A stretch of 64,000 bases of DNA, taken from the NCBI GenBank assembly GCA_900316955.1, contig ONEX01000002.1, positions 230,064-294,063 of the forward strand, in the 5' to 3' direction. The notes under the pieces are model-generated. The model was not told the DNA's origin. It saw nothing but the letters and a program-made list of their open reading frames with translations, and searched no databases. Every line of letters starts with the position of its first letter. Positions within the stretch are counted from its first letter, which is position 1. Source of the stretch: an uncultured Bacteroidales bacterium (GTDB taxonomy: Bacteria > Bacteroidota > Bacteroidia > Bacteroidales > UBA932). Both the position numbers and the translations under genes were made by a program. Positions 31,427 to 64,000 of this stretch are shown in pieces.

Positions 31427-31561
31427 TGAGATTCCGGGTCAAGCCCGGAATGACATGATAAAGCCTCATTCTGAAGCGTCATGCCCGGCTTGACCGGGCA
31501 TCTCTTCCTCGTCATTCCGGGCTTGACCTTCCTCGTCATTCCGGGCTTGACCCGGAATCTA
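31427..31561. repeat. Cluster of four palindromic repeats upstream of susC
   Basis: A family A copy at 31427-31454, a variant with arms ATGCCCGG/CCGGGCAT at 31478-31503, a half copy at 31511-31528 and a full copy in opposite orientation at 31535-31561. All share the pattern GTCAT..CCGG..TTGAC..ATCT. The 572-bp gap 31216-31787 holds this cluster, an AT-rich stretch and a candidate small RNA unit. Confidence 0.8.
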
Positions 31562-60650: not shown

Positions 60651-61349
60651 TTATTCGGCGGTGAACGCCTTCGGATCCAACTTGACGGCCGGGCTCATGG
60701 TCGTGCACAGGGTCGCACCCTTGAAATAGGTGCCCTTGAGGGACTGGGGCTTGAGCTTGAGCACGGCGCTCACGAACGTCTTGGCGTTCTCGGCGATCTG
60801 CTCCGGGGTGAAGGAGACCTTGCCGATGGCGGCGTGGATGATACCGGTCTTGTCCACCTTGAAGTCGATCTTACCAGCCTTGACTTCCTTGACGGCATTG
60901 CCGACCTCCATGGTCACGGTGCCGGTCTTGGGGTTCGGCATGAGACCGCGGGGACCGAGGATACGGCCGATCTGACCGACCTTGGCCATCACGGACGGGG
61001 TGCAGATGATCACATCCACATCGGTCCAGCCTTCCTTGATCTTGGTGATGTATTCGTCGAGACCGACATAGTCGGCGCCGGCTTCCTTGGCCTCGTTCTC
61101 CTTGTCCGGGGTGCAGAGGACCAGGACGCGGGTGATCTTACCGGTTCCGTTCGGAAGGGTGACAACGCCACGGATCATCTGGTTCGCCTTGCGGGGGTCC
61201 ACACCGAGGTTGGTGGTGATTTCCACGGACGCATCGAACTTGGTGTAGGTGATTTCCTTCAGCAGCGCGCACGCTTCCTGGAGGCTGTAAACCTGGTTCT
61301 TGTCATACTTGGCAAGAACGGCTTTCTGATTCTTGGTCAACTTGCTCAT
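60651..61349 (-). CDS. rplA: 50S ribosomal protein L1
   Basis: 232-residue rRNA-binding protein of the L1 stalk. The family signature appears in [15 protein letters not shown], with flanking [20 protein letters not shown] near the N terminus. Normal length. It follows rplK by 15 nt. Confidence 0.98.
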
Positions 61350-61364
61350 GGTTCGTGCGTGTGA

Positions 61365-61808
61365 TTAAAGGTTCTCGGGGAATTCGCCTTCCACCTTGAT
61401 ACCCATGCTGCGGGCCGTACCGGCCACCATGGACATCGCGGAGCGGAGGGTGAAGCAATTGAGGTCGGGCATCTTGGACTGGGCGATCTCCTTGACCTGG
61501 TCCCAGGTCACGCTCGCGACCTTCTTACGGTTCGGTTCGCCGGATCCCGAAGAGATCTTGGCGGCCTCCTTCAGCGAGACGGCCACGGGGGGCTGCTTGA
61601 CCTCGAAGGAGAAGGACTTGTCACTGTAAACAGTGATGACGACAGGGAGGACCTTGCCGGCCTGATCCTGGGTGCGAGCATTGAACTGCTTGCAGAAGTC
61701 CATGATGTTCAGGCCCTTGGAACCCAGAGCAGGTCCTACCGGCGGCGCAGGATTCGCAGCTCCGCCCTTGATCTGGAGCTTGATGAATCCAGTTACTTCT
61801 TTTGCCAT
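61365..61808 (-). CDS. rplK: 50S ribosomal protein L11
   Basis: 147-residue protein of the GTPase-associated centre. The N-terminal [20 protein letters not shown] with the proline switch and the C-terminal RNA-binding domain ending in [14 protein letters not shown] are intact. It starts 9 nt after the nusG stop. Confidence 0.98.
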
Positions 61809-61817
61809 GATTAAATG

Positions 61818-62381
61818 TTATTCTTTCGTTACTTGAGTAAAGCTGAGCTCGAGGAGGGTCTTCCTCCCGAAGATCACTACCACTACCTTGAGTTTGCTCC
61901 TGTCTTCGATGATTTCTTCGACAGTTCCGCTGAAGCCGCTGAAAGGACCGTCCGTAATCTTGACGGATTCACCGACTGTGAAGTTGACTTCCGTCTCGGC
62001 TGCGCTGACGGCGTTCTCGTCCTGACCGCCGAGGATGCGGGCCGCCTCCTCGTCCCGGATGGGGACAGGGATGCGCTCGTACTGGCCGTTGCCGGTCTTC
62101 TCGGTCAGGAACCCGGACATGCCGGGGATGCCGTTGCGGATGACATATTCGAGATCAGGGTTGAGTTCCGCGTGGATCAGCACGTAGCCCGGGAAAAGGA
62201 GTCTCTCGACTTCTTTGCGCTTGCCATTCTTCGTGACGATCTCCTTCTTGACAGGAACGAGCACCTGGTCCACAACGGATTGCAGATCAGCGTGTCTTTC
62301 GATTTCCTTGACGAGATATTCGGCGGCCTTCTTCTCTTTTGTTCCCGCGGTACGCAGAACGTACCATTTCTTGTCAGCCAT
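61818..62381 (-). CDS. nusG: Transcription termination/antitermination factor NusG
   Basis: 187-residue elongation factor linking RNA polymerase with Rho or the ribosome. The NGN domain (KKWYVLRTAGTKEKKAAEYL, then LLFPGYVLIHAEL) and the C-terminal KOW domain (GESVKITDGPFSGFSGTVEE) are clear. ATG 62381 is used; a TTG two codons upstream is ignored. It lies 14 nt after secE. Confidence 0.97.
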   Translation of the reverse strand: MADKKWYVLRTAGTKEKKAAEYLVKEIERHADLQSVVDQVLVPVKKEIVTKNGKRKEVERLLFPGYVLIHAELNPDLEYVIRNGIPGMSGFLTEKTGNGQYERIPVPIRDEEAARILGGQDENAVSAAETEVNFTVGESVKITDGPFSGFSGTVEEIIEDRSKLKVVVVIFGRKTLLELSFTQVTKE

Positions 62382-62395
62382 AGACAAAAATCAAA

Positions 62396-62584
62396 TTACA
62401 ATGCGTAAATAAACTCCATCAGCTTCTGGAAAGCGAAATCCATCGCGAAGACGACCACAGCGAGGATGAACGTAGAGACGAGGACCAGCACCGCAGAGTT
62501 CTGCAGCTTGGACCAGGTCGGCCACGTCACCTTCTTGGTGAGCTCCACCCAGGATTCCTTAAGATAGTTAATGAACTTTCTCAT
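62396..62584 (-). CDS. secE: Preprotein translocase subunit SecE
   Basis: 62-residue membrane subunit of the Sec channel with the single-helix form usual in most bacteria. An amphipathic part (FINYLKESWVELTKKVTWPT) is followed by one transmembrane segment (AVLVLVSTFILAVVVFAM). Position between tRNA(Trp) and nusG is canonical. Confidence 0.97.
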   Translation of the reverse strand: MRKFINYLKESWVELTKKVTWPTWSKLQNSAVLVLVSTFILAVVVFAMDFAFQKLMEFIYAL

Positions 62585-62665
62585 CTTGCTTTAAATGGAC
62601 GCCGGAAAATTGGAAGCGGGAATCCGGCATCTGTTAAACATTTACCAAATCGTAACCTTTGATAT

Positions 62666-62756
62666 TGGCAGGGGAAGCAGGATTCGAACCCACATCGACG
62701 GTTTTGGAGACCGCTGAACTACCCTTGTTCTTGAACTACCCTTGTTCTATTCCCCT
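62666..62756 (-). tRNA. trnW: tRNA-Trp (anticodon CCA) with a duplicated D-arm
   Basis: Acceptor AGGGGAA pairs with TTCCCCT, followed by G and an encoded CCA. The anticodon arm is GCGGT-CTCCAAA-ACCGT with anticodon CCA. The T-arm is GTGGG-TTCGAAT-CCTGC. The D-arm segment AGAACAAGGGTAGTTCA occurs twice in direct tandem (62748-62732 and 62731-62715). The gene is therefore 91 nt instead of the 74 that remain when one copy is removed. All other parts look functional. It sits between tuf and secE, the usual place of the tRNA(Trp) gene in this phylum. Confidence 0.9.
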
Positions 62757-62762
62757 GTGAAA

Positions 62763-62790
62763 GGCGGGTGCGCCCGGGGGCGCTCCCGCC
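62763..62790 (-). terminator. Hairpin between tuf and tRNA(Trp)
   Basis: GGCGGG and GCGCC pair with GGCGC and CCCGCC around a 4-nt loop, with one internal mismatch. Only three T follow on the minus strand, so it may be a partial terminator or an RNA-processing site that separates the tuf mRNA from the tRNA. Confidence 0.5.
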
Positions 62791-62811
62791 AGTTTGGCAA
62801 TGGGCCGATGA

Positions 62812-64000
62812 TTACTCGACGATCGCGATCACCTGGCCGGCGCCGACGGTACGGCCACCTTCGCGGATAGCGAACTGCAGACCGTTGTTCATGGCCACCG
62901 GAGTGATGAGCGTCACGGTGATTTCCACGTTATCGCCAGGCATGACCATCTCGACACCTTCCGGGAGCTGGATCTCACCAGTCACATCGAGGGTACGGAT
63001 GAAGAACTGCGGACGATAGTGATTGTGGAACGGGGTGTGCCGGCCGCCTTCGTCCTTCTTCAGGACGTAGATCTGAGCCTTGAAGATCGTGTGCGGAGTG
63101 ATGGACTTCGGCTTCGCGACGACCTCACCACGCTTAACCTCCTTCTTGTCCACGCCACGGAGCAGCAGACCGACGTTGTCGCCAGCCTCGCCCTGGTCGA
63201 GGAGCTTGCGGAACATCTCGACACCCGTCACGACGGAGGTACGAGGCTCGTCACCGAAACCGACGAGTTCGACGGGATCACCCACGTGGATGGTACCGGA
63301 CTCGATACGGCCCGTCACGACGGTGCCACGACCGGTGATGGAGAAGATGTCCTCGATAGGCATCAGGAAGTCCTTGTCAACGAGACGCTCCGGCAGCGGA
63401 ATGTACTCATCGACGGCATCCATGAGCTCCATGACCTTGTCTTCCCAGACCTTCTCACCGTTGAGGGCGCCGAGGGCGGAGCCACGGATGATCGGGCAGT
63501 CCTCATCGAACTTGTAGAAGCCGAGGAGGTCGCGGATTTCCATCTCGACGAGGTCGAGCATCTCCTCATCGTCCACAAGGTCGACCTTGTTCATGAAGAC
63601 GAGGATCTTCGGGACGTTGACCTGACGGGCGAGCAGGATGTGCTCACGGGTCTGCGGCATAGGACCGTCGGTGGAAGCGACAACGAGGATAGCGCCATCC
63701 ATCTGGGCAGCACCGGTAACCATGTTCTTCACATAGTCGGCGTGGCCAGGGCAGTCGACGTGAGCATAGTGACGCTTTTCGGTCTCATACTCGACGTGGG
63801 CGGTGTTGATGGTGATACCGCGCTCCTTCTCTTCCGGAGCGTTGTCGATCTGGTCGAAGGACTTCACCTTGTCCGCGTTACCGGCGACGCGCTCGGCGAG
63901 CACCTTGGTGATGGCGGCGGTGAGGGTGGTCTTACCGTGGTCAACGTGGCCGATGGTACCGATGTTGACATGCGGTTTGGTTCTCTGGAATGTTTCTTTT
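62812..64000 (-). CDS. tuf: Elongation factor Tu, start just outside the window
   Basis: Delivers aminoacyl-tRNA to the ribosome. The frame is open to the right edge. The last visible codons read [25 protein letters not shown] in pieces, so only the first two codons (expected Met-Ala) are missing. GHVDHGKT (P loop), DCPGHADYV (G3), NKVD (G4) and GSALGAL (G5) are intact, followed by domains 2 and 3 ending in [10 protein letters not shown]. Full length should be about 397 residues. It leads the tRNA(Trp)-secE-nusG cluster. Confidence 0.98.

What the first reader, a model, noticed from the sequence alone, without database searches (positions are those of the whole stretch)
62666..62756. tRNA(Trp) gene with an exact tandem duplication of the whole D-arm
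Read on the minus strand, every part of a normal tRNA(Trp) is present once, except the D-arm. The 17-nt unit AGAACAAGGGTAGTTCA appears twice without any mismatch, giving a 91-nt gene. Each copy can fold into its own 4-bp stem with a GGG-containing loop, so the RNA would have five arms. tRNA(Trp) is usually single-copy in Bacteroidales and sits at exactly this locus, so the cell may depend on this unusual molecule. Alternatives are a recent slippage mutation rescued by a second gene, a spliced or edited precursor, or an assembly error.
Basis: seen in the sequence. Interest (0 to 1): 0.87.

Follow-up and report, generated by a model that had tools for sequence, protein, structure and literature searches.

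The report
Tryptophan tRNA gene with doubled D-arm
The only tryptophan tRNA gene found in this bacterial genome assembly carries an exact extra copy of one of its arms, so if the assembly is right the cell makes its proteins with a five-armed tryptophan tRNA not seen in the relatives checked.

Summary
Window 62756-62666 (minus strand) is a tRNA-Trp(CCA) gene in which A9-A26, exactly the D-arm, stands twice without mismatch (62732-62748, 62715-62731): 91 nt instead of 74. With one unit left out it equals the gene of a close relative (G240) at 74 of 74 bases. It lies in the usual tuf-trnW-secE place. No second tRNA-Trp was found in the 3.13 Mb, 98.46%-complete assembly. TrpRS and RF2 are present. 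Two contigs that meet in tuf overlap by exactly 67 bases, suggesting de Bruijn assembly with k near 67; the 34-base repeat is shorter, so the junction was probably in reads, which were not available. Pattern surveys found the doubled arm only here; another species of the genus (G271) has a separate 6-nt tandem duplication in the same D-loop. Best reading: a recent duplication in an apparently sole, essential tRNA gene, tolerated because acceptor, T and anticodon arms are intact and one D-arm can still dock. The predicted topology is like that of class II tRNAs; ARAGORN even calls it tRNA-Pro(GGG). Assembly or strain artefact and a missed second gene remain open. Expression and function are untested.

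The parts
62666..62756 (-). tRNA-Trp(CCA) gene, 91 nt with encoded CCA, D-arm doubled
62750..62756 (-). acceptor stem, 5' strand AGGGGAA (U8 follows at 62749)
   Evidence: pairs with 62670-62676 in the fold
62732..62748 (-). D-arm copy 1 (AGAACAAGGGUAGUUCA)
   Evidence: hairpin
62715..62731 (-). D-arm copy 2, identical to copy 1
   Evidence: hairpin
62698..62714 (-). anticodon arm GCGGU-CUCCAAA-ACCGU, anticodon CCA at 62705-62707; top pair G27-U43 is a wobble
62677..62693 (-). T-arm GUGGG-UUCGAAU-CCUGC
62666..62676 (-). acceptor stem 3' strand UUCCCCU (62670-62676), discriminator G73 (62669), CCA (62666-62668)
62763..62790 (-). G+C-rich hairpin between tuf and the tRNA gene, possibly the tuf terminator or a processing signal
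   Evidence: fold of 45 nt upstream; no shuffle control
62812..64000 (-). tuf (EF-Tu), cut by the contig end; its first codons are on contig C26
   Evidence: gene name recalled from the protein sequence and shared locus
62396..62584 (-). secE-like ORF, 62 codons plus stop, downstream of the tRNA gene
   Evidence: name by position and recall

Best explanation
A real, recent tandem duplication of the whole D-arm in the apparently sole tRNA-Trp gene, whose 91-nt product works as the cell's tryptophan tRNA. Shown: exact duplication of A9-A26, otherwise unchanged tRNA, normal locus, no other tRNA-Trp in the assembly, TrpRS present, TGG codons in use. Inferred: end processing, CCA, charging by TrpRS and EF-Tu binding go on because acceptor stem, T-arm, G73 and anticodon arm are intact. 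One D-arm copy docks on the T-loop; the other is an extra hairpin, inserted between U8 and A9 if copy 2 is the working arm or between A26 and G27 if copy 1 is. The duplication probably arose by copying the D-arm hairpin twice during replication, after the split from the relatives sampled.
For: Exact repeat with a unique register. Gene equals that of G240 with one unit left out, 74 of 74; the 11 other genomes matched have one D-arm at this locus. No second tRNA-Trp: BLAST with the G240 gene gives otherwise only 14-22 base pieces with E 0.7 or more; core GGTCTCCAAAACC occurs once without mismatch; the 38 other listed tRNA hits were typed and none is Trp. TrpRS one open gene. 252 TGG in 17,980 codons of 31 hand-picked ORFs, some perhaps not genes. 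Contig ends in tuf overlap by exactly 67 bases, more than the 34-base repeat. The genus tolerates D-arm changes: G271 +6 nt, G152 +1 nt, and D-stem pairs change in step.
Against: No reads or RNA data. Only one genome has it: 1 of 400 in the genus survey, 3 of 398 in the lengthened-D survey of which only this one has a whole extra arm. The genome has more exact tandem duplications than relatives sampled (8 in 464 kb against 1 in 400 kb and 1 in 400 kb), which could be an assembly habit. Fold energy is ordinary (z -0.61). 1.5% of the genome may be missing, and 3 to 5 of the 197 genus genomes matched seem to hold two copies. The insert sits in the tRNA core, where damage is expected.
Confidence: 0.52

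Rival explanations
1. Assembly or strain artefact: the doubled arm comes from a minority strain, chimeric reads or a gap-filling step, and the main population has the ordinary 74-nt gene.
For: The gene lies 1.2 kb from a contig end in conserved tuf; the tRNA is identical in many species of the genus, so mixed reads can tangle the graph; this assembly has a raised number of exact tandem duplications; no other record has the 34-nt unit pair (own species may be left out).
Against: The 67-base exact end overlap points to k near 67, longer than the repeat, so the junction was probably in reads (inference). Collapse is commoner than expansion for such repeats (recalled). The breakpoints coincide exactly with the arm, which an unmerged overlap would not prefer.
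Confidence: 0.25
2. A normal second tRNA-Trp gene exists in the unassembled part, and this copy is a tolerated, non-functional or weak duplicate.
For: Completeness is 98.46% in 38 contigs. In the genus survey G210, G215 and G343 have matches on two contigs, and G124 and G163 have two matches whose rows were not printed; G116 and G219 count one gene twice.
Against: At most 5 of 197 matched genus genomes have two copies. This copy sits in the ancestral locus and shows no other change in 74 bases.
Confidence: 0.13
3. The doubled tRNA works but with altered decoding, for instance reading UGA at some rate, because the extra hairpin disturbs the hinge.
For: Changes at positions 24 and 9 of E. coli tRNA-Trp raise UGA reading (passages); both possible insertion points border that hinge.
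Against: Neither change is present; RF2 is present as an open gene and TGA ends 7 of the 31 listed ORFs. No data on read-through.
Confidence: 0.08
4. One D-arm copy is removed by RNA processing so that a 74-nt tRNA results.
Against: 17 nt is far too short for a self-splicing intron, and bacteria lack the archaeal-type tRNA splicing endonuclease (recalled).
Confidence: 0.02

Closest known systems
Ordinary tRNA-Trp(CCA) at tuf-trnW-secE in the same genus (e.g. G240)
   Same: Locus, all 74 bases, anticodon, acceptor and T-arms
   Different: One D-arm instead of two
Class II tRNAs (Leu, Ser, Sec) with a long variable arm
   Same: Acceptor stem plus four hairpins; ARAGORN fits the 91 nt to this shape
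   Different: Here the extra hairpin lies before the anticodon arm and the variable region has 4 nt; sequence is tRNA-Trp
tRNA-Trp of G271, same genus
   Same: Exact tandem duplication within the D-arm at the same locus
   Different: 6 nt inside the loop, giving one larger D-loop, not a second arm
Hirsh-type UGA-reading E. coli tRNA-Trp (G24A, A9C)
   Same: Same tRNA and same D-arm/hinge region
   Different: Point changes; here an inserted arm with A9 and the D-stem pairs kept, and no decoding data
Naturally occurring non-canonical tRNAs (review PMC7609411, passages only)
   Same: Natural departure from the cloverleaf
   Different: The passages seen describe lost or resized arms and tRNA-Sec; none describes a doubled D-arm

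Membership tests
bacterial tRNA-Trp | anticodon CCA in a 7-nt loop with U33 | tested here: met
   CUCCAAA loop, 62698-62714
bacterial tRNA-Trp | 7-bp acceptor stem, G73, 5-bp T-arm | tested here: met
   identical to G240
bacterial tRNA-Trp | same gene place as orthologues | tested here: met
   tuf-trnW-secE
bacterial tRNA-Trp | one D-arm (cloverleaf) | tested here: not met
   two exact copies
bacterial tRNA-Trp | charged with Trp and used by the ribosome | not testable with these tools
   needs cells or RNA
class II tRNA | long variable arm between anticodon and T arms | tested here: not met
   variable region CGAU, 4 nt; only ARAGORN's refit gives such a shape
tRNA-Pro(GGG) | Pro tRNA body and U33 before GGG | tested here: not met
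   loop AAGGGUA has A33; body equals tRNA-Trp of G240
tRNA pseudogene | decay of stems and a working copy elsewhere | tested here: not met
   stems intact, 74 of 74 identical outside the extra unit, no second copy in the assembly; unassembled part not tested
UGA-reading tRNA-Trp | G24A, A9C or another hinge change with UGA reading | tested here: inconclusive
   the two point changes are absent; hinge may be disturbed; reading not tested
intron-containing bacterial tRNA gene | self-splicing intron, usually in the anticodon loop | tested here: not met
   extra piece is 17 nt and copies the D-arm; only the tRNA family was matched by Rfam in 61000-64000

The most novel reading that the evidence does not exclude
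A natural five-armed elongator tRNA with two complete D-arms is the sole tryptophan tRNA of a living bacterium, and the extra hairpin at the 8/9 or 26/27 hinge changes its decoding (UGA leak, speed or accuracy), a natural counterpart of the Hirsh suppressor.
Probability: 0.1. Interest if true: 0.85.

Novelty: new variant of a known kind. Interest (0 to 1): 0.52.

Why it matters
The tRNA core is among the most constrained RNA structures known. A sole, essential tRNA carrying a complete second D-arm would show that a whole helix can be added beside the hinge without loss of function, and would give a direct test of how hinge geometry sets decoding accuracy. It also shows a practical trap: ARAGORN reports this gene as tRNA-Pro(GGG), so the genome would be annotated as lacking tRNA-Trp.

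Tried and rejected
Rejected: chance repeat; splicing (17 nt, nothing to support it); a true tRNA-Pro(GGG); a recoded genome (RF2 present, TGA used as a stop).

Led nowhere: generic scans for any tRNA with two GGTAG-type D-arm motifs. In 239 matches read from the loci held, 120 were 57 nt long, by the examples seen initiator-like tRNAs that carry the motif twice by nature; I printed the 45 with the best repeat score and saw no doubled D-arm. With narrower spacing the viral scan gave 71 stretches without a limit notice. Of 83 matches in loci held, three are this locus fetched three times and none of the other 80 shows a doubled D-arm; the next by score, L378, is a repeat that does not look like a tRNA. 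Phylum survey: 2 of 395 genomes, this one and G869, an ordinary tRNA with a chance upstream motif. Genus survey: 1 of 400. Doubled D-arms without this motif in both copies would be missed.

The RF00005 genome search is not exhaustive: a tRNA-Pro(CGG) that ARAGORN sees in L030 is not among its 39 hits. I rely more. One search was a script that failed on file names. One search scored some structures of the wrong length; one search repeats them correctly.

Papers (open-licence library only): searches (97 papers, 20 listed; 7; 0; 2; 30, 10 listed; 24, 12 listed; 6; 9; on a guessed genus name; 2), 66 (36, 10 listed). I saw passages of PMC13092985, PMC7609411, PMC11805395, PMC9897764, PMC8450103, PMC4013460 and PMC2680895, of the rest only listings. 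None of what I saw reports a bacterial tRNA with a doubled D-arm; that is no proof of absence.

Full report
What is there. On the minus strand, 62756 to 62666 reads as a complete tRNA-Trp(CCA) with an encoded CCA end: 7-bp acceptor stem AGGGGAA/UUCCCCU, U8, the 17-nt unit AGAACAAGGGUAGUUCA twice, the anticodon arm GCGGU-CUCCAAA-ACCGU, CGAU, a 5-bp T-arm, G73 and CCA. No other near copy of the unit lies in the window (0.04 expected from shuffles with up to 3 mismatches). The neighbouring bases exclude any other register, so the repeated piece is exactly A9 to A26, the D-arm with its two flanking bases.

Structure. The minimum free energy fold is an acceptor stem with four hairpins: D, D', anticodon and T. 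It scores -25.2 kcal/mol, against -21.8 with only one D-arm copy paired and -21.1 for one merged long D-arm. The energy is ordinary against shuffles (z -0.61), and energy cannot tell which copy would dock. ARAGORN fits the 91 nt to a class II shape, with copy 1 as D-arm, copy 2 as an anticodon arm with GGG, and the true anticodon arm as a long variable arm, and so reports tRNA-Pro(GGG). That reading fails on content: copy 2 has no U33 and the body is a tRNA-Trp. But it shows that the topology of the doubled molecule is one that nature uses.

Relatives. Eleven same-genus relatives matched have one D-arm, with the tail of tuf before the gene. G240 has a 74-nt gene equal to this one with one unit left out, and the first 36 bases after it are also the same. 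G240 is the closest of the loci compared for nusG-secE (90.0% over 826 bases); for tuf the closest was L114 (90.0%), and G240 was not among the eight best printed. So the duplication came after the split from these relatives and nothing else in the tRNA has changed. In the genus survey 197 of 400 genomes match the tRNA-Trp pattern (not all rows were printed, and genomes with other substitutions or gaps do not match). In a family survey for lengthened D-regions 3 of 398 genomes match: this one (+17), G271 (+6, an exact tandem ACAAGG in the loop) and G152 (+1). In the genus loci held, the D-stem changes in step: GAAC/GUUC, GAAU/AUUC and GUAU/GUAC, so the arm is under structural constraint.

Is it the only tRNA-Trp? 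Within the assembly, yes as far as tested. BLAST with the G240 gene finds this locus and otherwise only pieces of 14-22 bases with E of 0.7 or more. The core GGTCTCCAAAACC occurs once without mismatch; the two one-mismatch places are a tRNA-Cys and a place where ARAGORN finds no tRNA; of the two-mismatch places five were checked with ARAGORN and none held a tRNA. The other 38 RF00005 hits were typed and none is Trp. The genome is 98.46% complete in 38 contigs, so a hidden copy is not excluded; 3 to 5 of the 197 matched genus genomes seem to hold two copies. TrpRS is one open gene. In 31 ORFs picked by hand, some perhaps not genes, TGG occurs 252 times in 17,980 codons.

Is it real? Contig C35, which holds the window, ends inside tuf. 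Contig C26 ends with tRNA-Thr, -Tyr, -Gly, -Thr and the first codons of tuf, the order seen around G240's gene. The two ends share exactly 67 bases. Such exact overlaps are usual for de Bruijn graph assemblers, so k was probably near 67 (inference). The 34-base repeat is shorter than that, so the sequence across both copies was probably present in reads. Against this, several genomes of the genus have this gene about 1 kb from a contig end (for example G276, G305, G389), so the place is hard to assemble. And this genome has more exact tandem duplications of 13-120 bases than the relatives sampled: 8 in 464 kb, three of them in the window, against 1 in 400 kb of G105 and 1 in 400 kb of G016, G420 and G334 together. 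That may mean a lineage prone to such events or an assembly habit. Reads would decide.

How it would work. Shown: gene content and a predicted fold. Recalled: RNase P, CCA repair, EF-Tu and TrpRS mainly use the acceptor stem, T-arm, discriminator and anticodon, all unchanged here. Inferred: one D-arm docks through its GG on the T-loop and the other is an extra hairpin at the 8/9 or 26/27 junction. Both places border the hinge where G24A and A9C in E. coli tRNA-Trp raise UGA reading (passages), so altered decoding is a fair but unsupported guess. RF2 is present and TGA ends 7 of the 31 listed ORFs, so the code looks standard.

How rare. The 34-nt double unit was in no record of the genome-contig collection, from which the window's own species may be left out. 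Pattern surveys for any tRNA with a doubled GGTAG-type D-arm found this gene only, in 400 genus genomes and in 395 phylum genomes apart from one chance case, and none in viral contigs. What I saw of the papers names no bacterial case, within an open-licence library.

Verdict. Observation confirmed, interpretation partly supported: a recent whole-D-arm duplication in an apparently sole tRNA-Trp gene, probably in the reads and, if so, probably functional. Interest is moderate because everything beyond the DNA is untested.

Noticed in passing
L120 1467-1546 (genome G271, same genus): tRNA-Trp with an exact 6-nt tandem duplication (ACAAGG) in the D-loop, a separate D-arm expansion at the same locus.
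   Followed up: yes
L088 (genome G030); also G234, G249, G368: tRNA-Trp with U27; in L088 position 43 is C, so the top pair of the anticodon stem is lost (4-bp stem). PMC13092985 (passages) links such tRNA-Trp to UGA reading. For the other three only the 5' side was seen.
   Followed up: partly
window 62763-62790: G+C-rich hairpin just upstream of the tRNA gene. All 15 upstream stretches of 45 nt folded (this genome and 14 relatives) give a stem, with different sequences (no shuffle control). Perhaps the tuf terminator or a processing signal.
   Followed up: partly
window 31504-31552: Exact 24-nt x 2 tandem of a palindromic element (GTCATTCCGGGCTTGACCCGGAATC type) at the start of an ORF; similar REP-like units stand nearby.
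   Followed up: no
genome G000: L424 15132, L425 5717, L426 12849, L428 19300, L434 14687: Further exact tandem duplications of 19-35 nt; 8 in 464 kb here against 2 in 800 kb of four relatives. Lineage trait or assembly habit not settled.
   Followed up: partly
L009 1501-1576: tRNA-Pro with anticodon AGG by ARAGORN; the other Pro tRNAs seen are UGG and CGG, and no normal GGG one was seen. A34 outside tRNA-Arg is uncommon in bacteria (recalled).
   Followed up: no
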